Of a stretch of 64,000 nt of DNA, positions 18,528-64,000 are shown one piece after another (the stretch's first letter is position 1; each line of letters opens with the position of its first letter). The notes beneath the pieces were generated by a model. That model saw only the letters and a list, made by a program, of their open reading frames with translations, ran no database searches and had not been told where the DNA came from. This DNA is from Branchiostoma floridae (lineage: Eukaryota > Chordata > Leptocardii > Amphioxiformes > Branchiostomatidae). The stretch is taken from contig NC_049983.1 of the NCBI RefSeq assembly GCF_000003815.2, positions 13,770,240-13,834,239 of the forward strand, given 5' to 3'. Position numbers and translations under genes: made by a program.

Positions 18528-21500
18528 TTATTTGCAGGTGTACTCCTCGGTCCGCTCACTGCACTGGTTACACTTGACGTAACAGCACCAGTGGAACTTA
18601 CAGTTACATTGCCACGTCTTGACGAACTGGTGCGTGTTGTAGCCCCTCCCGCAGCACATCAGGTCACACCCGTCCTGGTACGGGCTGGTCCGGTTGCACC
18701 TCCGTCCGTGTGTCCCGAGCGACCCTGTTGCCTCGTCACGCTCGCAATAGTTCGGTGACCCGCGCAGGTACACCAGGGAAATCTCGCGAGGTTTCTCGAA
18801 GGTCCGAGAATTTTTCAGTTTCAGAAACGTCGGTCTTCGCGTACGCCTGGCGCGAACGGCCTCCACGAGCTGGGCATCGTGGTGGTACTTCTCCTTCAGG
18901 ATGTTGCCGACTTCTCGGAACCGTGGGAGAGTAATCCAACATGTCTTCATGGTGCAGGAGCCTGAGACACCGTGGCACTTACACTCCAGACGGGTGTGCT
19001 GGTCAATCACCTACAGGGGAGAACACCAGGCGTTAGACAGCAGAGAAGAGGACAGCAGTAAATTGTTTTGTTAAACCTAAAACAGTTGGAGCAATTGTGT
19101 TGCCACACGGTTGCCCGAGATCATCTGAGTGTTCTTGATCAAAGAGTACATCTTTATGAAATGTTGAAAGACGTCTATTGTTGCTCCAGTATGTGATATC
19201 CCTAAATACAAAGCAAAGACTATCATTTCAACCAATTGTGACATCGCCTACATAAAAGCATAAAAAATGCATTTTGCGATACTTTTTTTTATGAAGCAAA
19301 AGAACAGCGTAGTTAACGTTGCATACAGCGTGCCAAAAACGGCATCAGGCTCACAACAAAGCAACAAACTATGACAGCAGTATTTAATACGTCACACCTT
19401 ACATTACGATTACAGGACACAAAGAAAGGGAACTATCTGCATTCTACGCGAAATTTTGAACCAAAATGTTGTATACACCTTCCTACCAGCCTCATTGTTG
19501 TGGAGGTTCATCAGGGCCCGCGCGTTCTGCTCCACCTCCCGGGCGTCCACGAACTTCTTGCAGAAGCGGAGCCCGTACTTGACGTCGGCGGAGCAGCCGC
19601 CCCACTTCCAGCCCTCGTCGTTCAGGTCGCCCTCTTTCGTGCGATCACAGCCGCAGTCAGAGATGTTACCCTGGCTGGAACAGTAGCACATGATGGTTAG
19701 ACACATGGCGGGATGACAGAAAGGTTTACCATGGAAGCTCTGCTCTGCCAATACCTGAGGAAAGTATTGTTATCTACGCAACTCTGTTCAAGGAAGGTTG
19801 ACAAGAGAACCTCATTGCTCTATCATGTTTATCATAATTCTATAGCTAGTTGAGCAAAAGCTGAAATTCTGTCTTGAGGATTAGACGAATGGGGGAAAAT
19901 AGCATTAACAAGACTTTGAACTTATTTGTGACATCCAACAGTCCTCGCCTCAAACATGCTTTGACTACAAATAACAAACTTGGCCTCTCAAGTGTATCAA
20001 CATATGTTATTTGTTGAAATGATAAAGACAAGTCCCGTTTTAGAGAAGAGCGTAAACTACGTATAACCTTCGGGACTGCAACTTTCGTGTCTGCAGAGGG
20101 AAATGCGGGAAGAGTTGCCTACCTGCAGGCTGTGACGATAGCGTGCACTAGCGCCGCCGAGCTGATGGCGTACGTAAAGGCAGCTTCCTTGCTTCCTGCA
20201 CGGAACATAGAAAACAATATACGTTTATATTGACTTCACTTGATATCTCTTAACGGTTCATCTTTCTTTACTTTTCTTTACAAATCATTACTTTATAATT
20301 TTATCAGTCAAGAAATCGTTCTGACATCAACAATATGTAACACAGTTCAACCAAGGCGCCATGTGGTCAAGTTTTCTTCAGTACGATTCCATTGACATTT
20401 TACCCAAAATTCAAACTTAAAAATCGCCCCACGTAGGATACTTTTTCCCTAGCTTTCTTATTATCGTATCACTAAGTGTTAGCTGTGTTTCCATTGTTAA
20501 ACAGTACAGTCAAAGGATTGTTCGTCTTTGACCAAATATTATGCCTTTGGCACCATGAGATCAGTGTCTACAATAAACCTGGCAAGCGCACATCGCGCGC
20601 TGCTTCGACTCGCTCCTCCAACAAAACAACGTCTGAAGTCTGGAGAAAATTGTGTGGGAGGGAAAGGTCTTGTGTTTTTAACCTCGACCCGGAGAGATTC
20701 ATCGTGTACTTGCTGTCCGCGAGGTATAAAGAAGACATTACACACTGTAAGGCCGTCTCCAGGGCCGAGCGTGTCATCCGCGAAACAATCCCTCTCAACA
20801 GATGCGGAGGAAATGAAAAATCGACGTCTTTGTCGCCAAAACAAACATGCACCACAAGTAAAGTTGGCTAAAATACTCTCTTCAGTAGGTCGGGGGCAAG
20901 TGAGGTGAGTAGGTCCTGTGAGTTAGCAAACTGAGGGGAGAGCCAACTGCGTTACCCGAACAAACGACAATGTTGCCTCTTTTAGTGGATGTTTGTTCTA
21001 CCCCTTCTGCAAACATCTGTGAACCGATGAAGAAATTTTATCTGAAGAAGGCTCTGTGAGCAGTGCAAATAGTTTACGTTCTTCTGAGCTTGGAAGAAAT
21101 TGACAATGTCTTTAAGAAGATTATCATAAGGGCCTAGAGAAATAGGATTTGGATTTCCTTTAATTGGTTAGCGCTACGGCTTAGCGCAGCTGTGGCTGCC
21201 AAGTTACTGACATCGGCGCGCTATCCCAGGGAAAACCGAAAAATGTGATCTCACCAAGATAGCTAGTAGCACATTGCACCCCTGTGTTATTATGCAAAAC
21301 ATGGCCTACGGTTTTGAGACTAGGTCAGTAGTCTGGTGTACGAGTTAAATGATTAACTCATTCGACGTTTGAAGAAGTGAAGGCGAAGAGTACCGCAAAA
21401 TGGAAAATGTCCACGGTGATTCGACTTGGAGGTTTGAGTGAGAAAATGGACCGTCTGCGATGATTCTAAGTTCGCGACTAAAACTGGCATGCAGGGTTTT

Positions 21501-24500: not shown

Positions 24501-27500
24501 CGTGCTCCCAGTAACTATACACAGGGCAAGTTTGCTAACCAGTTTCTTTGTTGTTTCCTTTCTTCGACACCCCCTAAGTGTTTCTGAAATCTTGAATAAC
24601 AAGATTTTTAAGATGTGAACCCACCGGAATCCAACCAGCTAACAGCGATTGGTGGTATCTGTTATTAGTTTACTTAATTCCGCGGTTACCCGTTTCATGC
24701 GGATGGTGTCAATAATGAGGTGTTACTGTTCTGATTTAGCATAACGTCATCTAGGTCAGGTTAACGTCCGGTCGTTCTTTCTAACCAGGGTAGCAGAGAA
24801 ACGCCAAGCATAGTAAGACAGTAACATCGTGATTGCTCCACATAACAACATAGCGCTGTCCAAGGTGCTGAAAAATCCTCAATAACACTGTAACAGCTTC
24901 CAACAACTAATTCCTCAAGTCATCCTCTTTTATACGTTTATATTTAAAGCCAGCTTGTAACAGATAAATACATGTTGGATCTTAGTATATTCATGGTGTA
25001 CAGGGTCAGTGGTGTTTTATGCATCAAACACAATGTCCAGGATAATGATGCTGACTATGGGATAGATAAGGTAACGGCTCTAAGGTAAGACGACTCACCT
25101 ATCCTGAGTTCCCTCCCGAAGACGTTATCGTTGTCCATGCCGGTACAGTTCCAGCGGGAGTGGCGGAACTGGTAGCGACACTCGTCGATGCCCCTCTGCG
25201 CGCCCTCGCCGATGGCGACGATCAGGTCGGGGCGAGTCTGACAGATGGCGCGCTGCCGCGGCACCAGGCCCGGGATCCTGTTACAGATGATGTTCGCACC
25301 AAGGGCGACCACGGTGGACAGCGACCTGTAGAAGGGCACACAACGAGAACACTGCTATCTACGGGGAGCCACACAATTAAAAACAGACAAAACTGTAGTT
25401 TAAGCATGTAAACCCTAGGTCACTTAGGTAGACTAGTCCATTCTTGGAGCTCTCTGGACACTGGCACCGTCTACAAAGTGTCTAACTTCTTCGCTTTTTA
25501 AATGGCTTAGCAACATCTAAACCTTGAGAGAAGGGATAGAAATTCTCTTCAACTTAAACATTACAAGAAGGCCGCTCCTTAACATTGGCTTCATAATGAA
25601 ATTTGCAGTGAGGTGCGCACGAATTTAGTTCCACTCACATGATAAGAAGAAAGATCGCTTTGCTTTATCGTTTATCGTAAGTCACTTATTTCACTAGATA
25701 TAACATCATGAATGGACTATTCTTATTCAATTCTCTGTCCGAGATGCAGAGTATTCTTTGAGCTCTTTGCCTCACATGGCAAGGACAGGAGATCTAGAAT
25801 ATGGCATGCAGTCCAAAGAGCAAACGGAACGTAGTCGGGCATCCACCGTAAAACTCACAGCACTTGGTCAACAACCAAAGCGGAGGAGTGCCCGTGCACC
25901 AAGAGCGACTAAATGTTTCTACACTTACGTGTACTTAAGAAAAGACTGCGAACTCTCATCTTTGACAACTCTACATCACAGAAACATAAACCGCCATGAA
26001 GTTAAAGAAATAGCATGTCTTCCCTCCATGCGGATATGTTGATCGGAAGCATGACAGGCCAGGCCTGACGCAGGGGCAGTGCTTCCCGGCGCGAGCAGCC
26101 TTAAGCCGTAAAGCCACTTAATCTATAACGATTATGTACATAGGAGACTTCAACTGTTCTTACAGCAGGGTCGGATTTGTTCCATTTGATCATTCCTCTA
26201 ACACGTTAGATGTGGACTGTTTAAAGCTAATGAAATAACTGAAGGATGTGTGTCATCTGGTTCAGGAAGGAACCTAAGGCACAGTTCACACTTCTGCGTA
26301 TGTCAATGTTAGTTGCGTACTGACATTATTTTGGCTTGGATAAAGTTTAGGGGAAAGAGGCAATTATTTTCACTCTGCCCCACCGCTGTGCAGTCTGGTT
26401 ATCTGACCGCGTAAAAAATGGCCTTAAACTTCATCAAAGCCAAAATAATGTCAATACGCAAGTAAATACGGTTTTGGATATACACATAGGTGTGAGGACC
26501 CTCAGTGAACTTTCTTATGATCCGTACTAACGATACATGTGCGCGGGTACCTCGGATGCTAGTTTCGTCAACTTGTTGCCCACCAAAAGTGACATTATAA
26601 GCAAGCATCTAAAGGACGAAAACTTCCTAAGCGTGGTTACTAAAAATACAAAGTCGCCGTTCGCTGCCTAACACAGTAGGTTTCAGTTAGCACGATATCC
26701 CTTTATCAAATAGGCAAACATACTAGTCCAGGTTCACCGCCGCACCCAGGGCGTACCTTCCGTATGCTGAAAGTCATTTCACTGTTCCTTTCTGTCTACT
26801 TATGACGCATTTCAAGCGGGAAGCTACAATAGGATAAGACATGTCCTTCCGTAGCCTCCCAAAATGACCTCATTGTCACAACACACGTACATTCATCTCT
26901 CAACGGTTAGCAGGGGGTTGGTCGTCTGTTATTTGTACAGAGAGTGGGCGTTCTTAACACGGTCTTCTTTCACTTACTGGATCTTACTGGAGTTCTGTTT
27001 TCTGACAACAGCTACAAACATTACAACTACAAGTACAGCACTACTGTTTTCTAAAGCATATTGGAGTAGGTTGTCACCAGTTAATCTATCTTTATATTTA
27101 ATTAATCTTGAAGTAAAGTATGTCGCCACCAGGACCAAAGACAAAGTCATATACTAGTAGTCGCCATTTGGTGTCGACGAAAATGTACAGTGAGGGCGGA
27201 GATTTTACAAGCAGCAAAGTTCTCAAAGAGTACGTAGATTTATGTATACTATACAACTACAGACGCCATAGGTAGAGTAGACGCACATCTTAAAACAGAG
27301 GCTCGATACCTGCGCTCGTACAAAAGAAGCTCAGTACGTAGGAAATATGAACGATAAGATATTGACCTGGTTCTAGGTCAGTAGTCATTTATCGGACAGG
27401 CCGATGGCATGTCATAAACTCTTCGTAATCACATCAAACAAACTATCGCCTTTGGGAAGGAACAGACTTACGACTTTTGCGTAGCAGTTAACTACGGGAT

Positions 27501-30500
27501 GTACTGTTACGTACAGGGCTACAAGCTGTGAATCAGGCGACGGCAGACTGGGCAAAACTTACCACAGTAGGGTGCCAGTTAAAGATATATCTACAGTTCC
27601 CCACCAGTCTTTATGAAACTAGATACAATACGGAACAGGTTGGACTTACTGGTCACCTGTCGCCGCCGCTAGGGTGCTGACCAGGTATAGAAGGTGCAAG
27701 AGCCGCTTCCTGGGCGATCTAGGCATGGTCATGGCTCGCTCAGGCGGACTTGGTGCGCGACAACAAAGTTGGAAGGAATATAACTGATATTATAATTGCT
27801 TGGCGTCTGGACCTGGCTAATTTGATTCGCGGGGCTTGGCTAGCTCTGTGGGTCCTGGTGAGAAGGGAAGGGGCGGCAGAATCAGCACCAGATGTAGCTG
27901 TCTCTCCCCAGCATGTGAAGGGAACACCTCGCCACTGGAAGGGGTCGGAATGCGGAGGACGCGCACAGAGGCGGCGGCTCTTATGTGCTGGCCCCGGGAA
28001 AGTCCAGGGGACAGAGGAGAGGAGAAAACAATTCCGCACGCATCCTCTTGAATTCCTGGGAACAATGGCGAACCATGATTGGCAGCACAGCAGCTCTTCA
28101 TGCAGGGATCCCCCTCTGGCCATTGGCCGAGGAGTGCTGGAGTGCAGACCTGCTCGAGAGGGACTGGGGAGTACTTCATTCCGTCTAGAAGGAGGGTCTG
28201 CATGGGGGGGTCTTGGTAACGCTTAACGGTGAATTCAGGAGGCCCGGTAACGGTTAACGGTAAATTCAGGAGGTCCGGTAACGCTTAACGGTAAATTCAG
28301 AAGGAGTTACAAAACATAACACCGTTGAAAGTAACATTGAGGTGCATTCCTATTCATACAACGCTAGAGTAGTTGTATCAATGGGGGAAAATATCCGACT
28401 AATGACAGAGCAAAAGGTGCCCAGAACCCGGAGGAATGACAGGGACATTGTCCATGACATCTGTAAATTGACGGAGGCAGAGTTCCCGGCCCGCCACAGA
28501 GACGGCGGCAGCAAATTTCTTATGGGGGGATTGAACCATTGTTTCAGCACATGGAGCGCCGAAGGCGCGACGCATCCCAGGGGGGTCCGGGGGTATGCTC
28601 CCCCGGGAAAATTTTAAAATCAAGACCCTCTTAAATGCTGTCTCCTGCACTTTCGGCAAATTTTGCCGACTGACTAAGCTAGGTTGATTTTGACATTTTC
28701 ATCAAATTACACAATGATTATAGCTTTGGCCTCCACCCCCAGAGCCCCCGACATATTTTACAATTTCGAGCTCAGAAGGCACGAGACGTTGCAATATAAG
28801 TCCGGGAAAATTAAAATCTGGACCATCTGAAACGCCATTTACTGCATTTTGATGGACTCATTTTGCTGTAAGACGAAGCTAAGTTAAATGACATTTTATT
28901 AGAGAGAAAAGTTTTTTGTGCCTACCCACGCCCCTAACATATTTTCACCATGTCATCGTGAGCGCCAAAGGCGCCAGCCGTCGCAAGGAAGGTCCGGAGA
29001 AACCTCATTTTCTGCGTTCTAGGAGTACTTTTTGTCCGAAACTAAGTTTACACTGAAATCTGTATGAGTGATCAAGTTTTTTGAGGGCGACGCTTCCGCA
29101 ACATATTTTACCCTGTCCAGAGCCGAAGATCGGGAGGCTCGGAGAAAATTTTGAAATCTGGACCCTTTGAAACGCCATTTCCTGCATTTTCCGGGGTTCT
29201 ATCTGGCATTTGACTTCGTGTGTATAACGGGTTACGAAGAATTTCTTGGTAACGCTTAACGGTGAATTCGGGATAACAAATAACGGTTAACGTTGAATTA
29301 AAACGACCAATAACGCTTCACGAAGAATATACCGATAACGATTAACGTTGAATTAGAGAGGGTCGGTAACGATTAACGGTGAATTAAAATGGCTCGTAAC
29401 GCTTAACGGAAAAAGGCATGCAGACCCTCTAGAAGGAATGTCGACCGAAGTACCTGTGAAGGATTGTAAGGTTGATAGTATCTCCGCCCCTGTCGTTCAC
29501 CTCGTGTGTTACTGAACAAATCTATCAATTAGTGGCCTTACTGATCACCCAATTAGTGACATATCCATCCATCAGCCGGACCTCGTGAAACACGATAGGC
29601 AAACACGCCCATGCACTACACCTGGAAATGACGTAACGGCGACTTCAACTGTTAAGTCAGAAAGTCATGGAGAAAAAAATGGAACGAAAATGTATTAGTT
29701 TTCCTGAGCGCTTTGTATTGTTTCTTTTTATCAACAAGGCAATAGCGCCATAATAGACTTTTCTATTGCTATTGCAATTGCAGTGTGGTGAAAAATCTCA
29801 AGTGTTTCTTCGAACAGTACCAGTACTTTTCCTGTTGATACTCTAAGAAGTAACCCAAAGAGCTGGCAACGGGTGAGAATAAGTTTGTGTAATACGATCG
29901 GTACGTTGATATCGCCTTCTACTTGTCTGACTCACCACTCCATCTCTAAAACCATCTACGTCACCATCCTGACTGTCATATTCGCTTACGTCATTCATCC
30001 TCGCAGTCCGAGTTAGGCACGTGATCACCATCGCAGTGGTCAAAATCACCATCGCAGTGGTCAAAATCACCATCGCAGTGGTCAGAATCATCGTCATCAT
30101 CCTGGTTGTATGATTGAGTTACAATCATCTCTGTCGTCCGTCCGACATAGTTACATGACTCATCTCTGTCGTCTGTCCGACATAGTTACATGACTCATCT
30201 CTGTCGTCCGACATAGTTACATCACCCATCTCTGCCGTTCGACATAGTTACATGACTCATCTCTGTCGTGCGACATAGTTACATGACTCATCTCTGTCGT
30301 GCGACATAGTTACATGACTCATCTCTGTCGTGCGACATAGTTACATGACTCATCTCTGTCGTGCGACATAGTTACATGACTCATCTCTGTCGTGCGACAT
30401 AGTTACATGACTCATCTCTGTTGCTAACCTAAGGCCCCGTTCATACTAGGATTCGCGTATCCGGATATATCCGGGTACAGCGTGAATCCGGATATATCCA

Positions 30501-45378: not shown

Positions 45379-45384
45379 TTTATT
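45379..45384 (-). terminator. Candidate poly(A) signal of DNAJB9
   Basis: AATAAA on the minus strand about 1.1 kb after the DNAJB9 stop. Weak evidence: other AT-rich hexamers lie nearby. Confidence 0.35.
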
Positions 45385-46311: not shown

Positions 46312-46512
46312 TATGGAGCAAGAAAATCTTGAAGGAATTTTACACAATGCAAATTATACTTAAGACTCTAAACAAAGCTATCTGCAACTCGACTTGAAAA
46401 GGGTGAGAAAGCAGACACAGTAGCAGCAGAGAACTTGTCCTTGTACATAGTTGACTATGCTTTTTCAGCACAGTTGGAGTTATATGACATTCCCATGGTC
46501 ATCTTGAAGGGT

Positions 46513-47608
46513 TCAGGGGTCAGAGCAGTCAGTGTAGGTTGTGACCATGTTCCCAACTCTTTGTGTTACAGTTTTGCAGTTTTTCCCACCTAAACATAGC
46601 AGAGAGAAACATAACCTGAGTTACATGTAGATACACTTTTTGATTTTTACCAGTTCAGTACTTAATAAATCATTCAGCTTTTACAGAGGCTAATCAAAAA
46701 TGAAAAACAACAACAACAATATACAAAGTTATGTAGTCACCTGTTCTACTTGTTCTGGACTGCATATTCCTGGCCTGTCCATGGTGTTGTGCAAAGTGTT
46801 GAGCATGAGCATGTGCACCTGCATGTGCATGTGAGTGGGGCCTTTGGTGGTCTCCGAAGAAGTTGTCAAAGTCATCAAAATGAGCAAAGTGGTTGTGAAT
46901 GCTGTCAAAGTTGGCAAAGCTTCCAAACAGGTCATCATCATCATCATCATCCCCAAATATGTCATTGAAGTCAAAGAAGTGACCTCCGCCATTCCCACCA
47001 AAGGAGAAACGGAAACCACTGTCACCGCCGAAGCCACCATTAAACCCTGCACCTGCATGCTCATGTTGCTTGTGGGTATGGAAAGCATCAAAATGGTTGA
47101 AGAAGTCATTAAAGTCAAAGTTGAAGTCTCCAAATCCTCCAGGACCACCAGGCCCACCCCCTTGCTTGCTGAAGCCAAACTGGTCATATTCCCTCCGTTT
47201 CTGTTTATCTGACAGAACTTCATATGCTGCAAATAGAACAACAAAGACAACAACATGTGAATATAGAGCAATTTAGATACAAACAAAATGTATCATGTTA
47301 CATGTATCAAAGGAGTCAACTTTGTATGAGTACCAAGGTATAGGGTACCAAGATGCATTTATGTTTTCTTGCACAAACACAACAAACACACCTTCTGCAA
47401 TTTCCCTAAACTTAGTCTCTGCCTGTGGGTCCTTATTCTTGTCTGGGTGGTACTGGACGGCAAGTTTCCGGAAGGCTCTCTTGATCTGTTTGTCTGTTGC
47501 TGTCTTGGGCACACCCAGAACTTCATAGAAGTCTCGCTTGGCAAGGATGGAGTCCATAAGTAGAACAAGGAACACACATCCTACAAACAGGACTTTTTGG
47601 CTGTGCAT
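46513..47608 (-). CDS. DNAJB9: DNAJB9 / ERdj4-type ER co-chaperone
   Basis: Three coding exons on the minus strand: 47392-47608, 46741-47226, 46513-46589, giving 259 aa (vertebrate DNAJB9 about 223). Residues 1-23 form a signal peptide ([18 protein letters not shown]). The J domain starts at [20 protein letters not shown] and has the HPD motif at 54-56, which stimulates the ATPase of BiP. A Gly/Phe-rich region follows, then six Asp in a row ([12 protein letters not shown]) and a His/Ala-rich segment ([20 protein letters not shown]) that explains the extra length. The end, [14 protein letters not shown], matches the conserved C terminus of this family. It should act in the ER lumen in BiP control and protein degradation. 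Exon 2 has no in-frame Met, so it is easy to miss. Confidence 0.95.
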
Positions 47609-47632
47609 TTTGGTGTTGGTGGGATGGTATAG

Positions 47633-48144
47633 CTGATAGAGGAAAGAAAAAAGAATTAATATTCAATGATAAATTAACAAAATTCACAAGGAACGTGAAC
47701 ATATTGAAATGCAACCTCAACAAGTCTGAATATCTTTCTCTTTTGACCTTTTGATTCACCTCTGCCACGATAGGGGCAGAACAAAGGTTACATAAGCAGT
47801 GAATGCAATACACATCCTTTTAAAAATATCGATTATATGACACATTTGATACATAACCGTTTTTATTGTCACTTAGGCAATGTATCGTTACCACACGTTA
47901 ATAAATCATAACGCACGGACAGCATTTACATACATAAACATAAATATAGATTTCTTCCCAGAGTAATTCTTTAGTCTATTCCTAAATATATGTAATATGC
48001 AGGCAACAATTTCGCTTTCATTAAACATGTTGTCGTCTGCTAAAAAACGTTATCGCCCCCCTCCCCCGAGGCGGTTCGCATATCTAACACTTAACAACAG
48101 CTACCATGCCCCAATATAGATTCTAAGGTGAATCTTTTCTTACC
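47633..48144 (-). other. DNAJB9: DNAJB9 5' UTR intron and upstream exon end
   Basis: A strong donor CTCAAG/GTAAGA on the minus strand at 48144/48143 and a polypyrimidine-rich acceptor CTTTCCTCTATCAG ending at 47633 suggest a non-coding first exon ending at 48144 and a 511-bp 5' UTR intron. Inferred from splice signals only. Confidence 0.55.
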
Positions 48145-48249
48145 TTGAGACTACAAATTTGGCTCTATTCGTGACAAGGTGGGAAATACAATCTGCCAAT
48201 CCAACAATACGGTTTTCAAGTCGTCACAAAATTCTTCTGCGAGACTTCC

Positions 48250-48608
48250 TAGAATCTTCGTCTGGCAGCTCAGCTTTGCCGGTCTCGTTTCCGGGTAAAG
48301 GGATCCAATCAGGGAGATCTACTTCGGAAAATGTACTAATATGGAAGAAAAAACATCAAATATCGTTAGTCTGTAGACCAAACAAGCTTTAAATACTATG
48401 ACCTAAGATATTGATTATATATAGATTCTTTATTTTGAATCAAAGTATCTAAATTAACTTTATAAGAATCCAGATATACCCATTAATTTATGGTATAATC
48501 TAAAAGATTGGAACACGAAGCTCTTTTTGATTGGCTTACTTGGATCATGTGATAATTTGGTTTTGATATTTCCCATAATGCATCGAGGGCAGAAGAAAAC
48601 ACGGAAAC
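48250..48608. promoter_or_regulatory. Candidate bidirectional promoter DNAJB9/CRBN
   Basis: The inferred DNAJB9 first exon and CRBN exon 1 point away from each other with only a few hundred bp between. A CCAAT box lies at 48305-48309 and an inverted one (ATTGG) at about 48531. TTCCCATAATGCAT at 48570-48583 resembles the ZNF143/THAP11 site common in housekeeping promoters. Transcription starts are not mapped. Confidence 0.5.
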
Positions 48609-51600
48609 ATGGCTGACGACGTTTTACCAATTTTGATGCCGAACATCGAAGGAAACGGCGAGGATTCCTCCAGTGACAGTGGTGTGTGCCATCTCCCTTA
48701 TTGTTTGGTACATTGTGCACAGTTTAAGGTATCAGGACAGCGTGTTGTAAATGCATTACGTTCTCGTAATATACAGATAGGCCCATTATTTTTGGTTGCA
48801 TCAAAGGATAAATACTTGTTTTTTGACAGTGAAGATGGATGTGGGAGGGGGGCGGAGCAGGTGCCAAATACAACCCACAGTGACAATTAAAACGTTACCA
48901 TAGAACTGATCTTCTAACATAGCACCTATCCATAGAAGAAATTATGTAGGTCATCGGTGGTGTGTTGCATTGGTTAGAAATAGCAAGAAGCTTCAAACAC
49001 ATTCAACATCCTTTGTTATAAAGCACTTGTCAAGAAAGAGGTCACTCTGTGGACTATGCAATATCAATACACCAGTGGCCTGTAGTCATCTCACGTATCA
49101 TTGCAGTGACTCGTGCTGTTGGCCCCAATTCCAACTTCTGCATGCAATGCGGAATGGTCTTCTTTACAGATATTGACGCATTGAGACAATGTCGTAATAA
49201 AGCTGTCATTATACTGAAGGGACTAGGCTAAGATTCACAAATGAAAATTAAAGCTTAATATGTATAATAAATAGGGAATGCTGGAAACTGAACTCATTGT
49301 GTGCGCTTCAACTCTTTGAACTAAGTATTTTCATGTTGATAGTAAAGCTTATTTTCTTGTGTCAAAGTGTCATATTTAGTAAATAGACACAATCCACTGC
49401 AACCAATTATGTTACATGTCACACGGTCACACACAGCAGAAGAAATAAATTTCCGAAAATAATTTCATCAGGTTGTTAAAGTAAATAAAACTGGTTGTGG
49501 AAAAGAAGTTTTTAAATGTAGTTTTTAAATATTCTCTTCCACAGTTCCAGAGAGGGAGAGAGAGGGTGATGATACTGGAGATGGCCACGAGGATGAACAA
49601 CAGCAGCAGGAGCAGCAACAACAAGAGGGAGAAGACAACGAGAGAAAAAAGAAAAAGAAAGAAAAGGACAAGAAGAAAAAGAAGGACAAGCGCAACATGA
49701 ACTTTGATCAGTCCTTGCCTGCAAGCCATACCGTGAGTATTTCACAGGATTGTCATTTTGTGATTTAAAGCATGTTGTACCCTTTGTGTCTCTAATTTTA
49801 ATTTCATTTGTATCACAGCTGAAGGTTACATGGTCTTTGTTACAAAGTAATTAGGTGAAAGGAAGATGACTTGATGAAGAAATGACCAATCAAAACTTGA
49901 GCCATCATTCATTGTTCAGTAGTGACTCACAGTTCTTTTTAATACCTTCTACAGTACCTGGGGAGTGACCATGAGGAATACAGTGGCAGAACAGTGCTGG
50001 ATGATGAGAGTTTTGTTAACCTGCCCCTGCTGACCCTCCCCAGTGTGGTGCTGATCCCAGGACAGACCCTTCCTCTCCAGCTCTTCCAGCCACAGACCAT
50101 CTCCATGATGAGACATGTTATACAGAAGGACAGGACATTTGGGCTGGTCACTTCCAGGTTAGCCTGTGTTTTATAACTTTTGGAAAGCAGGGCTGGAAAC
50201 AAAACAAAGGAACCCTGTAGAAACCTGACCACAAAATTTAAGTCCTGAATCATCATCAGGACTTGGGAGAACTGAATAAACAGACTCTTTTAAACAACCA
50301 TTGCTTTATTCACACCAATGTTTTGGTGACTGTCTGTCACCTTCTTTAGGGCAATTCTGAACCATTGCTTTATTCACAACACCATTTTGGTGACTGTCTG
50401 TCACCTTCTTCTGGGCAATTCTGACTGGTTCACATTGTGAAGGAGCCCTGTACATTGTGAACCAGTCAGAATTACCCTGAAGAAGGGGACAGATGGTCTC
50501 AGAAACATTGGTGGGAATAAAGCAATGGTTGTCTAAATAGAGTATCTTCTATCAATGACATACCAACCTGATGAAACTACTCACGGACTTGCACTGTTTT
50601 GCTTTTTCCACAGGGGCACATCTCTGAAGATGTATAAGAGTTTTAGAAATGTAGCTTTAGAAAGTTTGTAGCTTTGTCTTTGTGACTTTGTTGTACTGTA
50701 TTCCGGCACATCAGATACCTGGACACCTCAGGTGCAACTCTTGCCAACATCGGAACCACAGCAGAGATATTCTCTGTGAAGGAAGAGGATGAGCATGGGA
50801 TTGAGACTATGAGGATTAAAGCCATGGGAAGGCAGAGATTCCTCATCTTAGAAACCAGAAGACAGGCTGATGGGTGAGTTTGTGTAATTTTAACATTTGT
50901 AGAAAAGCATCATAAAGATTTATCATTTAAGCACAAATGTTACACGTATTCAAATAACATGTAGCCAAATCATAAGTTCAGTAGTGTTAGTTAGTGTAAG
51001 GTGGGATATTATTTTGTTCTTGACTGTTTTTTCTATTGCTGCTCATTTTTCAGAAAACATCTTTCAATGTCAATTGTTCTTTGTACATTCCAGCATCATA
51101 ATTGGAAAGGTGAGGATCCTGCCAGAATGGGAGATGCCATCTGGCCTGGAGGGTGCAGAACTGAGATGTCACAGACTCAGTAATGTCCCTGAAACCACAT
51201 CAGCAATGGAGGTGGCAGCATGTGGGGGTCCAGCAGGGGACAGGCAGCCAGTGGCAAGGAGTAGAAATCTAAAGGTATCATATGGTATCGGACCGGAGTT
51301 TCTTTTACGATTTCGGAGGTTGGCGGGCAGCCTCAGGCCAAAGGGCTACAGTTCCGCTAGTAAACGTAGGACGCGAAACTTAATCAATATGGCGGAAAGC
51401 CGTATACTGCCTCTTTCCGACAAACCTATTGGTACCGTCTGTTGCCTCTTTATTTTGGTTAGAATATGTAAAAAAAATTTAATTTTGGACCCGAAAACTA
51501 TCATTTTTTAACACTTTTTTGATCGAAGCTGCTTGGAAAAAACGAATTTTCCCAGGATAACGGCCTACGTGGTAGAGAAGCTAAATTCTTCATGTTTGTG

Positions 51601-54085
51601 TAAAATGAAAATAAAAAAATTCCATGTGATAACTTTTTTGCAATCTCCGATGACGTCATTTCTTCGAAATCGCATGAAAAACGCCGCTATTTGGGTCATC
51701 AGGCGAAAAAACCGCATCACCGTTGCAGCGGACTAATACAAAAATAGTTTCGCTGGCTGACCAACTACTCCTCGCACAAAAACAATACAACCCACGGGCT
51801 TTTCAGAAATTACGACAAATCTATGCTCAGCTATAACGATCACCAAGCAATAAGGAGCAAAAGTCAGGGAGACAACAGCGCACTTCCGGCCTATTACACC
51901 ACCCTTCCGCCAACTCCGGTCAGATTTGAACTCCGACCCGGAACCATATGATGCAAAATCTTGTAGTTCAAATATACCTCAAGTCACTGTTGAATAATTT
52001 TGAACTTGATAATTTACCAAGGACTACATATGTTAATTGGTCTGAATTTGAAGAAATTTGTTCTTGTCTTGTAAAAAATGTTTACACTGTGTATCTATTA
52101 CCTCACTAAGTTCCTTGAGCAACACTACCAACACCATGTCTACTTCCATTCCAGAATAGATACAGAGCTGCAGATTGGACTTGGTTTCCACCATGGGTAT
52201 ACAGACAATATGATTGTGTAAGTATGGAGGTATTATTGAGCACATGTACTTAAAGAACTCTTTTTGTGTCAACTATATACATGTACATGTTTGTGTAGTT
52301 ATGTCGGTACAAAGAGTATAGTTGAAGATGCTGGTTCCGTAAAGCACTAGAGAGGAACAGGATTATAAAAGATAAGGGTGCACAGACAGAGTAGGTTTCA
52401 ATTGATGAAAAGAGAGCTATAGATACTTAAATGTTTGAAATGCTATTACCGGGGTAGAATAAGTAATGTATAACAGTTCTGCACTGTAAAACAAGTCTAT
52501 GATTGGAGACATGAGAATTGACAGCTTGCTGCTGTTTCTGCAGGATGTGTTAATGGAACTGGTGAAACGTGAGCTGTACAGCTGGAACGATACTCTACAG
52601 GGGAGTATCATGCCCACTAACCCTTCAGGTATGCACTATGCGTAAGGGAGTGGGATTGGGAAGAATTAACCAAAGAAATTGGCTGTCTTTTGAGACCAAT
52701 TTTATACATCACAGACATCACATAATTAATGGTTAAATTATAGAGTTACTGGCTATAACTAGGTTACAAAGCCACGAAAACTTTTATGCAGAAGGCTTGT
52801 CTTCAAATGAATAATGACCTATGAATAGTGCTGGCTTGTATTATGTAAATATCTTCTATCAGCTTCCATTTTCTGAATTACTCCTTAAAACTTAGTCTGT
52901 CTGTTTTGCGCTGCCCTTTTGCAGATTTCTCCTTCTGGGTAGCAGCCAGCCTCCCATTGGACGATGGTCTGCGGCTGCACTTACTCAGCATCAATAGTGC
53001 TGTGCAGAGGCTGAGATGTGAGCTCAGCATTATGCAGAAGGTAACGTGTAGGCCTGTAGGCCTTACATTTTTACACAAAGAAACAGCCTGACTGTATCAC
53101 GTTGAGATGGGGTGTTGTCTACTTCTTTATTATATATATGAACGGACTTGTTCTCTCTCACTCCCTACCATGCTTTGTTTATTATTAAAAATACTCTTCT
53201 TGTTTCTTCCCCTCAGTGCACCATCATGTGTTGCAGAGACTGTGGAAGTCAGATAGCTGAGAAGAAAGACGTTTTCAGGTACATGTACTATTGGCTGAAA
53301 TTTTCCAAGGTTTTCTGTGTCAATCTATGTTGGGGATTCCTTTTGTTGGGTTGGATTTTTTTCCATTTTGGTGATTCTTGTTTTAAAACAGTTATTCATG
53401 TTTAGTTTAAAGACATATTGTTGTGTTGATGTTTGCAGCATGTCTGTAGCAGGCCCGATGGCAGCATATGTTAACCCGGGAGGTTATGTTCATGAGACGC
53501 TGACTGTGTACCAAGTGACGGGCATCATGCACCATGGCCGGCCATCTATCGAACATAGCTGGTTTCCTGGGTGAGCACAACTTTAAGATAACTTAAAAAG
53601 ATTGGAAATTTGATCATATCTTTGTAACTACTTTATCAAATACATTGTATTGTGTATCATTGAAAAGCTTAGTGCTCTTTACAACGATATCCCATTTGTT
53701 ATGGTTGTACATTCATAGGTTGAGTTCCAGGGTTACTTATGTAAATAGGTTACAAAAGAAAAATTTCCCTAGTAGTAGATTTTTCAGCATTAGCACAATG
53801 TGTTACAATATTACATATATTGTATACATTGGTTGACTGGTATAACTTGGGACATTTGCAGTTGTTCAGCTTGTTCTCATGCAAGCCTTTAATCCCTTGA
53901 TCAGCTATGCGTGGACAGTAGCGGAGTGTCGGCAGTGCAGACATCACCTAGGTTGGAAGTTTACTCCTGCTAAGAAGAAACTGAAGCCTGAGAAGTTCTG
54001 GGGTCTGTGTAGGGCGTCGCTGTTGCCGGGGTTACGTAGTGATGGTGGAGACTCCGAGGAAACGGGGTGGATGCCAACAATGTAA
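48609..54085 (+). CDS. CRBN: Cereblon, substrate receptor of CRL4 ubiquitin ligase
   Basis: Eleven exons: 48609-48681, 49545-49732, 49955-50157, 50715-50873, 51094-51274, 52155-52217, 52544-52628, 52925-53040, 53217-53278, 53439-53570, 53905-54085, giving 480 aa (human 442). The N terminus is longer and has a Glu/Gln-rich then Lys-rich tract (about 35-75). [15 protein letters not shown] opens the conserved part. A LON-like domain follows (about 105-345, [14 protein letters not shown]), then the CULT domain. Zinc cysteines are 362, 365, 429 and 432. The pocket for cyclic imides and thalidomide is intact: H416, W418, W424, W438. Val426 equals human Val388. Gly391 replaces human His353. It acts in cytosol and nucleus, bringing substrates to DDB1-CUL4. 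Exon 5 ends at a donor that abuts a mobile element. Confidence 0.97.
50284..50543. mobile_element. Fold-back element in CRBN intron 3
   Basis: ACAACCATTGCTTTATTC at 50295-50312 is complemented at 50516-50533, giving outer arms of about 45 bp. Inside, the block GGTGACTGTCTGTCACCTTCTT occurs twice in direct order (about 50324 and 50389, given here only by position beyond its first bases) and AACCAGTCAGAATTACCCT pairs with GGGCAATTCTGACTGGTT. Non-coding; wholly intronic. Confidence 0.75.
51277..51952. mobile_element. 676-bp TIR element touching the CRBN exon 5 donor
   Basis: Imperfect terminal inverted repeats: ATCATATGGTATCGGACCGG at the left edge and the complement of ATCATATGGTTCCGGGTCGG at the right edge. 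The interior has no transposase. The left edge begins two bases after the exon 5 / intron 5 boundary, so all but the first two bases of the donor GTATCA come from the element. The reading frame of exon 5 stays open into it for about 80 codons. Confidence 0.75.
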
Positions 54086-58800: not shown

Positions 58801-58923
58801 CAGCAAATAGGGTGAAACAGAAGCTCTAAGGCGCAAAAAGTTCGTGAATTCGTGTTTAAATCGTCCAGAATAGAGGACTAAAACGTCACAACAACAAACC
58901 TTGCAACTCCTGATCGCCGCCAT
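55847..58923 (-). CDS. HSD17B10: 17-beta-hydroxysteroid dehydrogenase 10 / MRPP2
   Basis: Five exons on the minus strand: 58900-58923, 57753-57917, 56769-56933, 56403-56640, 55847-56037, giving 260 aa (human 261). A short-chain dehydrogenase: NAD motif TGGASGLG at 15-22, Asp40 to bind the adenine ribose, NCAG at 89-92, and the catalytic triad Ser154, Tyr167, Lys171 ([18 protein letters not shown]). The family oxidises 2-methyl-3-hydroxybutyryl-CoA in isoleucine breakdown and steroids, and is also a structural subunit of mitochondrial RNase P. It works in mitochondria. The first exon codes only eight residues (MAAIRSCK), ending in a weak donor GTTTGT. It lies head to head with ATXN10. Confidence 0.97.
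57550..57640 (-). repeat. Dispersed repeat related to the element at 28171
   Basis: On the minus strand, AATGCCATTTCCTGCATTTT and TCTGGAGAAAATTTCAA match the core modules at 28620-28650 and 29140-29190. It lies in HSD17B10 intron 2, next to a G-run (TTTTTTTTGGGGGGGGGGGG) at about 57501-57520. Confidence 0.65.
58524..58795. mobile_element. MITE-like element in HSD17B10 intron 1
   Basis: A perfect 15-bp inverted repeat, ATCCCTCTACACGCC at 58524-58538 and its complement at 58781-58795, bounds 272 bp of non-coding sequence. No clear target duplication. Confidence 0.55.
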
Positions 58924-59040
58924 GATGAAGAAGGTCACGAAGTAGGAAACGTCAGTGCGCAGACGCCCACTTTTAAACCAATCCAAGAACGCGACTCATA
59001 AAGCTGTCCAATCACAGCTGGCTTTACATACGACGATAAA
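58924..59040. promoter_or_regulatory. Bidirectional promoter HSD17B10/ATXN10
   Basis: Only 117 bp separate the two divergent start codons. The interval has two CCAAT boxes (58978-58982 and 59008-59012), which bind NF-Y, and a CRE half-site-like GACGTTT (minus strand, about 58949-58955). There is no TATA box in either direction. Both 5' UTRs must be very short or overlap. Confidence 0.75.
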
Positions 59041-62000
59041 ATGGCGGACGAAAACACGAGTTTGGGAAGTTTGCGGAGCTGTGCCAAGGTTTTAACTGAA
59101 TATGCGACTAAAGGAGAATTCATTGTTGAAGTTATAGGATGCAGAAGATTACAGGAAAACCTTGAGATACTGACAGAGCTGCTGAAATGTCAAGAAAACA
59201 GGCAAGTACTAAACAGTTTCTGTATGTTCAAGCCAAGGCCAGGGTATGTGTGTTCATGCGAACGACTTGACGTATGACCCAAGGCCCAAACATGTAAACA
59301 AACATTCAAGTTGGTACAAATAATGTAGTTCCCACTATTTAAATCCTCAGTAACACCATATACAGTCAAACCAGTCTATAGCGGTCACTCAAGGGACTAG
59401 CCAAATTTGACCACTAGCTATGGACAGGTGGCCACTATAAAGAAATGGCTGATAAAGCAAAATGCTTTCAGAAAACACTGCAGCTTAGATTAGAACATTT
59501 CTTCACATACACATGTAACGGCATAATTTGAACAGGTAAAACATTAAGATTTAAGATAAAAAAACCTTGTCAAACAAAACTGGACAGCATGAGTGTATGT
59601 TTTTTCCAAACAGAAAAAAAGTCATGAAAAATTATTATTTAACGTTACAACTGACTGAACGTAGACTATGGACCCTCTTCTTCTGATAACTGTTTGGAAA
59701 TCAAAAGATTTGAGCCTGCTGCTGTACGTGCACTGTAACCATAACTGTCAGTGTTGCTATATCAGTGGGACCGGAAAATATGTGGCCGTGACCACATTGG
59801 ACAGTGACGTCTATAGACTAAATAAATCCTTGATATTCATCATTGGGCAAAATTCAAGGGACCAACTTAAAGTAGCCACTAGGACTAATGCTCAGGTGAC
59901 CAATAACTAACTAGTAAGTCTAACATTACTACATCCATGGTGTAATTCTTGTATGTTTGGGGTTTGGAGCTCTGCCAAAAGTTAGCAGGATGTAAGAAAA
60001 CATACACAAGCACTCAATTAAGCCCTCACATGTTAGGTTTCATTAGTTTGTCCATATTAATATGATTATATTCCCTCAACAATTGTCCAGAACCAGTCTG
60101 CCTGAGTCGGTCTTCCGAGATGCCTCCTGTCTCCTGGAGGCAGTACTGCAGCACCTGGACTCCAGCCCCCCTGATGGATGGAGCCAGGGGGTTTTGGGGA
60201 CTTCCACAGAATGTTTCAGATTCCTCAGGAATTCCTGTGTTTCATGCCAAGCAAATCAGCTCAGAGTCTTGTAAGTTGCTTCTGCTATACACATTATAGA
60301 TGTATATTGTTCGCCATATGTGTTTATTATCCACTGACTTGGTAGTCGTTTCTACATTGTATTTCCCTGTACTGTTGGTGAACGATATTAGCACTTGTAA
60401 AGATAAACAATGTCTTGAATTGTCTCAACAGGAATGCAGACCTTGTTCCCACCACTTCTGCCATTGTCTCTCTTCTTGCAAAGCAACCAGAGTTATCAAA
60501 TGGCAGCCTTGAGGCAGCTGAGTTAGGTATGCAATTTCTTTCCTTGCCACTTGCGCTTGTAAATATATGTGGAGATTAGCTTCCTTTTAGATTTCAATTT
60601 CTTCTCTCAGAAATGTTGTAAGGAGCTTTCTTAATTTCAAGCAATGGGGAAAAATTCAGCTCAAATGGTGTGTTCAGAGGTGGATGTGTGTGTGCTCCTC
60701 AGTATTGTAGTTTTGTGGCTGATCCAGTATGGTAATACGGGTGGGACCGCGTGGCACGATCGGGAGCGCGTTGGTCTCAGGCCCGAGAGGTCCCGGGTTC
60801 AAATCCGCTTGCCGTGTCACCGATCTTGTGCCCTTGGGAAAGGCACTTTACACGACTTTCCTCACCTAACTCAGGTGTAATTGAGTACGTAGCTGCGGCT
60901 AGTGGCAGTGACAGGCCTTTGTTGTGGTGACAGGCCATAGGGGCATGTTCGGGCATGACGCACCCGCCATGACACACGAGTCAGGGGTAGGAGGAACCCC
61001 TTGCATCCTTGGTCGGAAGTCCTCCTAGGAGACGGAAACTCCAAATAATAAACCTGCATCTGCTGGGGCCGTCTTACGTGGCAAAACAGTTCTGTCCCTG
61101 TAGGACTTAGTGCGCCAGTACTAGACGAGAGGGTGGAGAAGGAAGTGCACACCCCTCCTTCACCTTAAAAAGTCACGTGCAGGCCAGGCAGACTGGTCGT
61201 CTAATCAACCTGTCTGCCTACCATTGATCTTCGGATACGAAGAAACAGCCATCATCATCATATCATCATCATCAGTATGGTAATAGTCATGATAAGATTT
61301 TTTTTGCTGTTCTTATGCATATAGTTGTACAGGTATCTTCATCCCAAATGCTGGCTCTACGCTGTGCTGTCCAGTTGCTAGGCAACCTGTCATCCGGGAA
61401 CCCATCGTCCCAAGAGGTTGTGTGGCAGGCAGCATACCCAGATGTCTTCCTGTGAGTACTGGCACAGTACAATAGTATGATACTCCAATTAAGAAGGTAT
61501 TTTTTTTCTTGATGGATGTTAACTGTTTTCAATGGAATATCTCATTGCACTTGTAATAAATTGTACCAGTCCATTGCAAGTTATGGTAGATGCCTGTTTG
61601 ATCCACATACATGAACAAGAATCTGTACAGCATAGCAGGCAAAGTGTATGAAAGACACTCAAATAATGTTTAATGTTTTATAAAATGATGCATTGTAAAG
61701 CGCATAAGTTACAAACACAACTATCGTTGTATCTTCTTCCCTAAATACTCTTTTGGTGCTTCACTGATGCATGACATTAAGAGTAAAATGTCCCAATGCT
61801 GTGTGTGTCGGTAGGTCAGCCCTGGGTTGTCCTGACCCCACAGCAGCAGGGTACTGCTGTATGGTCATCCACGTCTGTCTGAATGAGACCACCATGCAGC
61901 AGCTAGTGTTGGACACTAAGGGCCGTCTCCTGGTGCAGACTGTGCTGGACCTGTGTGAGAGACAGCCTGATCTAGACTGGGGGTCAGAAGTCTTTCTTGT

Positions 62001-63917
62001 TAATAGGAAACGCTAATAGTAGTAAATAATTGTCTTCTGCATCTCTTCAATTGTCAGTCAAATGAAGTAAGATTTGTTGTAGGTGTCATCAAGTATGAAC
62101 ACCCCTTTGTGTCCTTAACTTGGTAGCTGCCAATTTCTCTTGCTCTGATGTACACATCAGTCTATTGTTTATTTACCTTGTGCCCTTTCAGCACATAAGA
62201 CCTTAACTTTTAATTTCTCCATGGTCTTTGCTGTAAGTCCCTGCATCTTTAGCTATAATATGTTCTTTGTTAACATTTTATGTTTTGAATAGCCATACTG
62301 CATTAACCTACATGTGAAGGATATTACTTTTCCATAGACTGTATTCATTGTGCTGTGCTTAAGACATTATTCCTTCCACAGACTGTTGTTGGTGACTGAC
62401 AAGTTCCTGATGTCCAAGTTCTTCCTGCCCAATGTTTACAGTACACTTCCATTAGAAACAAGGTGGGTGCTATAGTCAGATTTGATGATCTACGATTAGC
62501 ACTGAATTGAAATAGCTCACTATACATTATAGAAAAAGGAATACATACCCTCATTCAGCATTTTTGACGATACCTGACTGTGCACATGATTCCCAGGATC
62601 ATCCTACTTGACATCATCTCAGCTAAGATAGGAGAGAGTGAGAGCAGCGGTCCTGGGAAGGAGGAGGAGCAGTTCCTGCCTGTTTTTGTGTTGGAGTTCC
62701 TGGCAGCTGAGTTCCAAGAAAACTTCCAGACAATCCTGTCTGTAGGGGAGAACACTGAGAACCTGGTAAGTTGGAATGCCTGGCAGACAGTCATAACCTC
62801 CATGGCAACTTGTCTACATGATGATGATACATGTACAACATAGTACTTTGTGACCCTTTGCTGACTGTGTTAACATATAAGGGTATTTGCCAAACTGAAA
62901 TAATTGTTCTAATTGATTGACATTTCAAGCTCTGTATACACTAGTGATTTTAATCTTTTTTCATATCCACAATTTTCCCCTCAGGAAGCAGTGATTATTA
63001 TGAAACTCCTGAAGGTGCTGTGTCTTGGAACGGGGCAACGGGAGAAATACATTGAACTTGTCAGGATGGAGTCATTACTAGAGTCTGGTGTAGGTAAGTC
63101 ATTGGTAGATTTTATATGTACATTTGGAGCATCAAAAAACAACCATCACTCAAACGGGTCTTCTGATAGGGAAGTTTGAAGGTTTTTGAACAAATCTGTT
63201 GTCATACTTCTTTATATGGTTACAAAGTATTGTGTGGTCTTTGGCACAGTTATTTGTCGCATTCTGTACAGTTACAAAATGATGCCAAAAGTTAACAATT
63301 TATCACATTACATGACATGGCAGTAGCCCCTTAGATACTACTGTAGCTACTTAGATTTAGTAACTAACTTGTGAAGGAAAGCAGTCTAACAAATCAACAA
63401 AGTTGCAGGAGAGTCTATGGTAAGGTACAGTTACCAAGGGAATCAGCAAAATAAATCAATAAAGCATGTGCAACTATTGGATTACCCATTACAAAAGAGT
63501 TTTGTGTATCATAGATATGGAGGACTGGACTAGGTTGATGCATCTTAAATGTAAACTTAGAAGCTAGCAAAAGATGAGTCATGGAAAAATTACCTCCCTG
63601 GATTAAAAACGTTGTAGGATTGAGACATGTTCATGTTTTAGCCCTTGGCAGTCTATAGGTGACTCAGATTTGTAGTGGTAAACCATAAACGTAGAATGCT
63701 AAAGATTTAGCAATGCTTTCTAATACTGTCTTTTGTCGCAGAATTACTCAGATTAACTACTGCAGCTGGTAAACTTGGGGACAACATCTTCAGCCAGTCA
63801 CAGAAGCTGGCCCCCCCAGACAGTCCTGATGATGTACACCCTGTACATGGGCTGAAGAGAGACCTCATACGTCTGCTGGGAAACATGTGCTTCCAGAACA
63901 CCTCCAACCAGGACAAA
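59041..63917 (+). CDS. ATXN10: Ataxin-10, C-terminally cut by window end
   Basis: Nine exons are visible: 59041-59201, 60091-60270, 60432-60526, 61325-61451, 61815-61982, 62382-62462, 62597-62765, 62985-63093, 63742-63917, giving 422 codons; human is 475 aa, so one or two exons lie beyond the window. Landmarks are ECFRFLRNSCVSCQANQ (exon 2), ALRCAVQLLGNLSS (exon 4), FVLEFLAAEF (exon 7) and DLIRLLGNMCFQNTSNQDK (exon 9). The protein is a helical, armadillo-like repeat protein of the cytoplasm linked to cytokinesis and neuron survival. Intron 1 has a GC donor (ACAG/GCAAGT) that is needed for the frame. Exon 4 starts at 61325 after TATAG; the nearer CAG at 61330-61332 would shift the frame. The donor of exon 9 (GTACAA) is the least certain. 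Confidence 0.95.
59202..60090 (+). other. ATXN10 intron 1, GC-AG type
   Basis: Begins GCAAGT and ends TTGTCCAG. It contains the repeat remnant at 59362 onward. Confidence 0.75.
59362..59905. repeat. Decayed repeat starting ACAGTCAAACCAGTCTATAG
   Basis: The left end (ACAGTCAAACC, GCGGTCACTCAAGGGAC, ACAGGTGGCCACTATA) has the look of a common marine-invertebrate MITE with CAGTCAAACC ends, by recall. Related words (GGGACC, GTGACCACATTGGACAGTGAC, GCCACTAGGACTAATG) recur to about 59905, but the right terminus is not clear. Confidence 0.5.
60725..60737 (+). repeat. Target-site duplication, left copy
   Basis: CAGTATGGTAATA, identical to 61273-61285, flanks the SINE at 60738-61272. Confidence 0.9.
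60738..61272 (+). mobile_element. Full-length tRNA-derived SINE in ATXN10 intron 3
   Basis: The head is tRNA-like with A-box region CGTGGCACGATCGGGAGCG (about 60750) and B box GGTTCAAATCC (60796-60806). Next comes ACCGATCTTGTGCCCTTGGG, shared with the fragment at 15365. The 3' end is a (CAT)n tail. A perfect 13-bp target duplication, CAGTATGGTAATA, lies at 60725-60737 and 61273-61285, proving target-primed insertion. The right end is only 40-50 bp from exon 4. Confidence 0.93.
61273..61285 (+). repeat. Target-site duplication, right copy
   Basis: CAGTATGGTAATA, directly after the (CAT)n tail of the SINE. Confidence 0.9.
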
Positions 63918-64000
63918 GTACAATGTTTGGAATTATCATCAGTAGTGTTGTTTGACTTTTAGGTTGACTTTACTGATGATAAACAGAGGAATAGAAAGTA

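What the first reader, a model, noticed from the sequence alone, without database searches (positions are those of the whole stretch)
18528..63917. Wnt7, CRBN and ATXN10 side by side: a pre-duplication version of two human regions
The window shows one Wnt7, one CRBN and one ATXN10 within 45 kb. From established knowledge, human WNT7B lies next to ATXN10 on 22q13, while WNT7A and CRBN are both on 3p25-p26. A single ancestral block carrying all three, followed by whole-genome duplication and reciprocal loss, explains both human arrangements. DNAJB9 and HSD17B10 lie elsewhere in humans.
Basis: partly seen in the sequence, partly recalled or inferred. Interest (0 to 1): 0.75.

Follow-up and report, generated by a model that had tools for sequence, protein, structure and literature searches.

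The report
Amphioxus block split among human chromosomes
A stretch of a lancelet-like genome holds side by side genes that in people are spread over chromosomes 22, X and 3, a clear local example of the already known ancient genome doublings and later gene losses.

Summary
The five genes are there: strong evidence for Wnt7, CRBN and HSD17B10, weaker but convincing for DNAJB9 and for ATXN10, which runs off the window. The window lies on contig C5 of a 513 Mb assembly, most likely Branchiostoma floridae (inferred).

The CRBN half is only chromosome-arm linkage in humans, and two 3p26 test genes gave a split answer: ITPR on C5, TRNT1 on C18.

Human HSD17B10 sits with RIBC1 and SMC1A on Xp11.22; RIBC2 and SMC1B sit with WNT7B, ATXN10 and FBLN1 on 22q13. 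I predicted RIBC on C5; it lies 2.7 kb past the window, followed by SMC1 and a fibulin within 50 kb. Matches for HUWE1, IQSEC and synapsin families fell only on C5. The block is the single-copy counterpart of 22q13, Xp11 and part of 3p: a new instance of a known kind.

The parts
18528..19010 (-). Wnt7 last coding exon (to the stop codon)
   Evidence: Pfam wnt E 1.2e-60; PDB Wnt-7a 258.8 bits
19479..19674 (-). Wnt7 coding exon, AG acceptor and GT donor
20123..20195 (-). Wnt7 coding exon, AG acceptor and GT donor
25099..25325 (-). Wnt7 coding exon (first one found; signal-peptide exon not located)
   Evidence: Pfam wnt E 2.2e-16
46500..47608 (-). DNAJB9: exons 47392-47608 and 46740-47226 plus a short last exon near 46.5 kb (end approximate)
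   Evidence: DnaJ E 2.2e-29; DNAJB9 chain 100.5 bits, not above bacterial DnaJ chains; last exon read
48609..54085 (+). CRBN (cereblon), 11 exons, 480 residues, open model
   Evidence: cereblon 463 bits
55847..58923 (-). HSD17B10, 5 exons, 260 residues, open model; its ATG is 117 bp from the ATXN10 ATG
   Evidence: (388.7 bits)
59041..64000 (+). ATXN10, 5' part; continues beyond the window
   Evidence: Pfam PF09759 positions 1-23, E 7.8e-4, sub-threshold; 32% identity over 394 columns to recalled human ATXN10; recalled C-terminus matches in the next 500 bases

Best explanation
The window and the 50 kb after it form a single-copy segment of an ancestral chordate chromosome: Wnt7, DNAJB9, CRBN, HSD17B10, ATXN10, RIBC, SMC1, fibulin, with Wnt5 about 130 kb on the other side. 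In vertebrates this chromosome was duplicated twice and each copy kept a different subset. One copy (22q13) kept WNT7B, ATXN10, FBLN1, RIBC2 and SMC1B; another (Xp11) kept HSD17B10, RIBC1 and SMC1A; the 3p copy kept WNT7A and FBLN2 (FBLN2 from memory), and CRBN as a distant linkage. Shown here: the order in this genome, and matches of the RIBC, HUWE1, IQSEC and synapsin families at one locus each, on C5. From papers: the human gene lists of 22q13 and Xp11.22. Inferred: that the human pairs are products of those duplications, and that HSD17B10 and ATXN10 were neighbours in the ancestor. Whether CRBN and DNAJB9 were already inside the block then is undecided.
For: Gene identities. From the human map I wrote down that RIBC should be on C5; it was then found as the only RIB43A locus scored in the assembly, 2.7 kb past the window end (8 of 8 first-look candidates scored). 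SMC1 starts within 8 kb of the window end and matches SMC1A at 718.6 bits. RIBC matches RIBC2 at 317 bits against 144 for RIBC1. A gene with the fibulin C-terminal domain follows (E 1.1e-26). Contig-level tests: of the 6 marker families that were answered, 5 have their best match on C5 (RIBC, ITPR, HUWE1, IQSEC, synapsin) and TRNT1 does not; C5 is 5.8% of the assembly, and a length-only null gives P = 3.6e-6 for at least 5 of 6, or 5.2e-5 for at least 4 of 5 without RIBC. The names HUWE1 (Pfam DUF913), IQSEC, TRNT1 (PolyA_pol) and ITPR for these Pfam families are recalled; ITPR was checked against a recalled sequence. The other Wnt on C5 at 13.64 Mb is Wnt5-like (209 bits Wnt-5a, 175 Wnt-7a). 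Human maps. Amphioxus chromosomes are known to correspond to the ancestral chordate groups (PMC7269912, passages).
Against: No outgroup or vertebrate genome could be read, so ancestry is inferred from one genome plus published human lists. HUWE1, IQSEC, ITPR and synapsin lie 4.4-13.7 Mb away and show chromosome-level linkage only. One ITPR-family exon lies on C1 and was not resolved. Wnt7 and ATXN10 point away from each other here but towards each other in humans (human strands from memory), so the order has been rearranged in one lineage at least. The fibulin is on the far side of SMC1 here but next to ATXN10 in humans. TRNT1 is on C18. DNAJB9 does not fit. No gene trees were built. The markers were chosen by me from a recalled human map; four planned searches did not complete and four never sent.
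Confidence: 0.82

Rival explanations
1. One reading: Wnt7, CRBN and ATXN10 were already within a few genes of each other in the ancestor, and reciprocal loss put CRBN on the WNT7A copy.
For: All three are within 45 kb here; CRBN and WNT7A share human 3p; ITPR, another 3p26 gene, is on the same contig.
Against: Human CRBN and WNT7A are about 10 Mb apart (recalled); CRBN is absent from the main texts of the two papers on the block; TRNT1, next to CRBN in humans (recalled), is on C18.
Confidence: 0.4
2. CRBN and DNAJB9 moved in between Wnt7 and HSD17B10 in the amphioxus lineage; only HSD17B10, ATXN10, RIBC, SMC1, fibulin and Wnt7 are ancestral neighbours.
For: DNAJB9 is on human 7q31 (recalled); the gene list printed for the published block holds neither gene, and neither name occurs in the main text of PMC9750109; local order is reported to be reshuffled often.
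Against: CRBN still maps in humans to 3p, an arm that also holds WNT7A and ITPR1.
Confidence: 0.5
3. The Wnt7-ATXN10 linkage is held by regulation: elements in ATXN10 act on Wnt7 (a genomic regulatory block), and the other genes are bystanders.
For: Proposed in PMC8851819 section 8 (passages); a stretch of about 21 kb in which I recognised no gene lies between Wnt7 and DNAJB9 here.
Against: Three compact genes and a changed orientation separate the pair here; PMC9750109 reports relaxed constraint on ATXN10; no regulatory data were available.
Confidence: 0.3
4. The gene order is chance and has nothing to do with the human arrangement.
For: One of the three genes between Wnt7 and ATXN10 (DNAJB9) maps to an unrelated human place (recalled), and one of six answered marker families is on another contig.
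Against: RIBC and SMC1 found next to ATXN10; 5 of 6 answered marker families on a contig that is 5.8% of the assembly.
Confidence: 0.02

Closest known systems
ATXN10-Wnt7 pair and the Wnt5/7 syntenic block (PMC8851819; PMC9750109)
   Same: Wnt7 and ATXN10 within a few genes, Wnt5 and a fibulin nearby
   Different: Here DNAJB9, CRBN and HSD17B10 lie between the pair, the two genes are divergent, and RIBC and SMC1 follow; CRBN, DNAJB9 and HSD17B10 have 0 occurrences in the main text of PMC9750109, and CRBN 0 in that of PMC8851819
Ancestral chordate linkage groups and their doubled vertebrate descendants (PMC7269912)
   Same: One amphioxus chromosome answers to several human regions that kept different genes
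   Different: The passages that I saw are at chromosome scale; this is a gene-by-gene case of about 100 kb
Amphioxus Wnt5-Wnt7 cluster (PMC6060547)
   Same: A Wnt5-like gene lies about 130 kb from Wnt7 on the same contig
   Different: Its main text has 0 occurrences of atxn10 and fbln

Membership tests
Wnt5/7 conserved syntenic block | Wnt7 and ATXN10 separated by no more than ten genes | tested here: met
   Three genes seen between them
Wnt5/7 conserved syntenic block | Wnt5 nearby | tested here: met
   Wnt5-like gene at C5:13.640-13.659 Mb, about 130 kb away; number of genes between not counted
Wnt5/7 conserved syntenic block | Fibulin 1/2 nearby | tested here: met
   Fibulin_C domain gene at about C5:13.870-13.883 Mb
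Wnt5/7 conserved syntenic block | ERC and FBXL14 nearby | tested here: inconclusive
   No hit with recalled fragments in the window plus 200 kb downstream; the Wnt5 side could not be read; the ERC family search did not complete
Single-copy counterpart of a duplicated vertebrate region | Genes that are paired in humans are single here | tested here: met
   RIBC, IQSEC and synapsin families each matched at one locus, on C5; SMC1, fibulin, Wnt7, ATXN10 and CRBN copy number in the whole assembly not established
Single-copy counterpart of a duplicated vertebrate region | Human copies lie on different chromosomes with complementary neighbours | tested here: met
   From papers only: WNT7B, ATXN10, FBLN1, RIBC2, SMC1B listed on 22q13; SMC1A, RIBC1, IQSEC2, HSD17B10 in one Xp11.22 gain
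Single-copy counterpart of a duplicated vertebrate region | Gene trees dating the human pairs to the base of vertebrates | not tested
   No vertebrate sequence set was available
Genomic regulatory block of Wnt7 in ATXN10 | Wnt7 enhancers inside ATXN10 introns | not testable with these tools
   No regulatory data, no second genome to align

The most novel reading that the evidence does not exclude
HSD17B10 and ATXN10 were bidirectional-promoter partners (117 bp between start codons here) in a compact ancestral block Wnt7-DNAJB9-CRBN-HSD17B10-ATXN10-RIBC-SMC1-fibulin. The vertebrate doublings split that pair cleanly, ATXN10 staying with RIBC2-SMC1B and WNT7B on 22q13 and HSD17B10 with RIBC1-SMC1A on the X, so that the human X-linked cohesin region and 22q13 are two halves of one lancelet neighbourhood, with CRBN the 3p remnant.
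Probability: 0.4. Interest if true: 0.55.

Novelty: new member of a known kind. Interest (0 to 1): 0.4.

Why it matters
It gives a gene-by-gene picture of how one pre-duplication neighbourhood was divided among human 22q13, Xp11 and 3p, and it corrects which second human region matters: Xp11.22 through HSD17B10, RIBC and SMC1, rather than CRBN on 3p26. It also offers a test of why such blocks persist. RIBC and SMC1 appear head to head here, the adjacent human RIBC2 and SMC1B are suspected to be co-regulated (PMC12960220, passages), and HSD17B10 and ATXN10 start 117 bp apart.

Tried and rejected
Let-7 beside Wnt7: human let-7 genes lie near WNT7B (recalled), but no Rfam family reached its threshold in the window. 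A first exon of Wnt7: none met simple signal-peptide and donor criteria; a looser earlier list of 15 candidates was not followed. ATXN10 among solved structures: the 3 hits at E up to 1 are Rho proteins at E 0.28-0.81, which I take as chance. Recalled human fragments of FBXL14, ERC1, NINJ1, ITPR1, TRNT1, CHCHD4 and LSM3 had no hit at E 1e-3 in the window plus 200 kb downstream, whereas FBLN1, SMC1A and the ATXN10 C-terminus did: 3 of 10 queries. The idea that CRBN's human neighbours are all on C5 failed for TRNT1. Sent but did not complete: ATXN10 (PF09759) and CRBN copy number, FANCD2, ERC. Planned but never sent: KDM5, TIMP, XPC, SUMF1. Literature searches for the paralogous regions by chromosome band (12 of 165 papers listed) and for RIBC/SMC1 synteny (6 of 6 listed) showed nothing on this block in the titles and abstract starts; of these I opened only passages of PMC8470780 and PMC12960220, and in those passages neither treats the block. 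The paper that I recall as the source of the ATXN10-Wnt7 pair (Irimia et al. 2012) is not held and was not read.
Full report
What is there. The window is animal DNA without tRNA genes or Rfam families at threshold. Reading both strands and fitting splice sites gives, in order: two tandem M14 carboxypeptidase genes on the + strand (about 4.3-9.0 and 10.7-15.2 kb; Pfam Peptidase_M14 in 4 of 4 exons tested); Wnt7 on the - strand; DNAJB9 on the - strand; CRBN on the + strand; HSD17B10 on the - strand; ATXN10 on the + strand, leaving the window. CRBN and HSD17B10 are open models with all introns bounded by GT and AG. Wnt7 beats the other Wnts with a solved structure by a wide margin (552 bits for Wnt-7a, 364 for Wnt-5a, 324 for Wnt-3, less for Wnt-3a and Wnt-8), but Wnt subfamilies without a solved structure were not compared. 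DNAJB9 and ATXN10 are the weaker names. The observation therefore stands.

Where it lies. The assembly holding the window has 513,431,437 bases in 431 contigs, and the window is at 13,770,240-13,834,239 of contig C5, which is 29,550,017 bases long. The tool names no organism. I infer Branchiostoma floridae from the assembly size (recalled), the Wnt5-Wnt7 cluster known from amphioxus (PMC6060547, passages) and an excess of the motif ACATGTA (29 seen, 6.3 expected), which I recall as common in amphioxus but which is not diagnostic.

The known part. PMC8851819 (passages) describes atxn10-wnt7 as a conserved pair, credited to its reference 6, and repeats the hypothesis that ATXN10 holds regulatory elements for Wnt7. 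PMC9750109 (first of two parts of the text, and passages) dates the ATXN10 and FBLN1/2 association with WNT5/7 to the last common ancestor of bilaterians, with reshuffling of local order and relaxed constraint on ATXN10 and fibulin. So a pre-duplication Wnt7-ATXN10 neighbourhood is expected in an amphioxus, and PMC7269912 (passages) sets out the same logic for whole chromosomes.

The CRBN part. Human CRBN and WNT7A share a chromosome arm: one 25.7 Mb duplication of 3p26.3-p24.2 contains both (PMC9623925, passages). That is not a local arrangement. I tested two other human 3p26 genes. The TRNT1 family (PolyA_pol) has its only match on contig C18. ITPR lies on C5 at 20.72-20.76 Mb: one exon there is 89% identical over 54 residues to recalled human ITPR1, and recalled RYR1 gives only a chance match; a further single exon of the family on C1 was not resolved. 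Thus 3p26 is at most partly of C5 ancestry, and CRBN may be an old neighbour or a chromosome-mate that moved. I give the old-neighbour reading 0.4.

Papers list WNT7B, ATXN10, FBLN1, RIBC2 and SMC1B in succession on 22q13 (PMC12111097, passages), and SMC1A, RIBC1, IQSEC2 and HSD17B10 in one Xp11.22 gain (PMC3435243, passages; its figure legend writes RIBC2 for RIBC1). If HSD17B10 and ATXN10 are ancestral neighbours, RIBC and SMC1 should be linked to them here. Before any search for RIBC was answered I wrote down that it should be on C5; I did not write how close. The RIB43A family matches only at C5:13,836,953-13,840,454 on the - strand, starting 2.7 kb past the window, and the gene matches RIBC2 at 317 bits. 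SMC1 follows on the + strand from about 13,841,628 to 13,859,149 and matches SMC1A at 718.6 bits. A fibulin follows at about 13,869,535-13,883,348 (Fibulin_C E 1.1e-26). Beyond it are a RhoGEF-type PH domain, a SEFIR domain and TASOR domains, which I read as ARHGEF3, IL17RD and TASOR, neighbours on human 3p14.3 from memory; the first two names were not tested.

Chromosome-level check. Six marker families were answered in the whole assembly besides Wnt. RIBC, HUWE1 (Pfam DUF913), IQSEC and synapsin have matches on C5 only, ITPR has 3 of its 4 matching exons on C5 and one on C1, and TRNT1 is on C18. The family-to-gene names are recalled, and the tool scores only its best candidates. With C5 at 5.8% of the assembly, at least 5 of 6 has probability 3.6e-6 under a length-only null, and at least 4 of 5 without RIBC 5.2e-5. 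These are rough numbers, because I picked the markers from the recalled human map of Xp11, 3p and 22q, four further searches were sent and never answered, and four planned ones were never sent. In the Wnt search, exon matches fell on C2, C3, C5, C12, C14 and C18, so C5 does not attract every family.

How it works. The best account is conserved ancestry plus loss: one segment, doubled twice in early vertebrates, each copy losing different genes. The order Wnt7, ATXN10, RIBC, SMC1 agrees with 22q13 apart from the place of the fibulin and the orientation of Wnt7 and ATXN10 (human strands recalled), and HSD17B10, RIBC, SMC1 agrees with Xp11.22 (human order recalled; the paper gives membership) once ATXN10 is removed. 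What keeps such genes together is not shown. Start codons of HSD17B10 and ATXN10 are 117 bp apart, and of DNAJB9 and CRBN 1,000 bp; RIBC and SMC1 look head to head with about 1.2 kb between their first matched exons. Shared promoters are therefore a plausible reason for these pairs (inference), and PMC12960220 suspects co-regulation of the adjacent human RIBC2 and SMC1B (passages). The regulatory-block idea for Wnt7 and ATXN10 is not tested here, and the three genes between them plus the changed orientation do not favour a tight constraint in this lineage.

Limits. I did not find the HSD17B10-ATXN10 neighbourhood or a CRBN-Wnt7 microsynteny described in print. The searches, with papers listed of papers found, were (20 of 73; 5 of 5; 15 of 20; 2 of 2; 15 of 32; 4 of 4; 2 of 2; 6 of 6; 12 of 165) and 115 (6 of 6); most listed papers were seen only as title and abstract start, the library lacks most subscription journals, and supplementary tables could not be read.

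Noticed in passing
window 4300-15300 (+): Two tandem M14 carboxypeptidase genes; three stretches of them are 76-90% identical at DNA level about 6.0-6.3 kb apart.
   Followed up: partly
window 58923-59041: HSD17B10 and ATXN10 start codons lie 117 bp apart on opposite strands, a candidate shared promoter.
   Followed up: no
window 427-1431 (-): Open frame with two CCHC zinc knuckles, gag-like, near two runs of N (284 and 643 bases) and a 93-base identical repeat at 1770 and 3565. Only described.
   Followed up: no
window 28211-31336: Arrays of 31-base repeats of two kinds in the gap between Wnt7 and DNAJB9.
   Followed up: no
window 59201: The first ATXN10 intron appears to use a GC donor (GCAAGT), since that choice keeps the frame to the next exon.
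   Followed up: partly
window 19674-20123: An intron splits the Wnt7 coding sequence right after residues Thr-Ala-Cys, before Gln-Gly-Asn; I recall no intron there in vertebrate WNT7 genes.
   Followed up: no
L010-L011 (C5:13854148-13857156): A reverse-transcriptase open frame of about 3 kb sits between SMC1 exons. Only described.
   Followed up: no
C5:12.02-12.03 and 21.00-21.04 Mb: Two further Wnt loci on the same contig besides Wnt5 and Wnt7; subfamily not determined.
   Followed up: no
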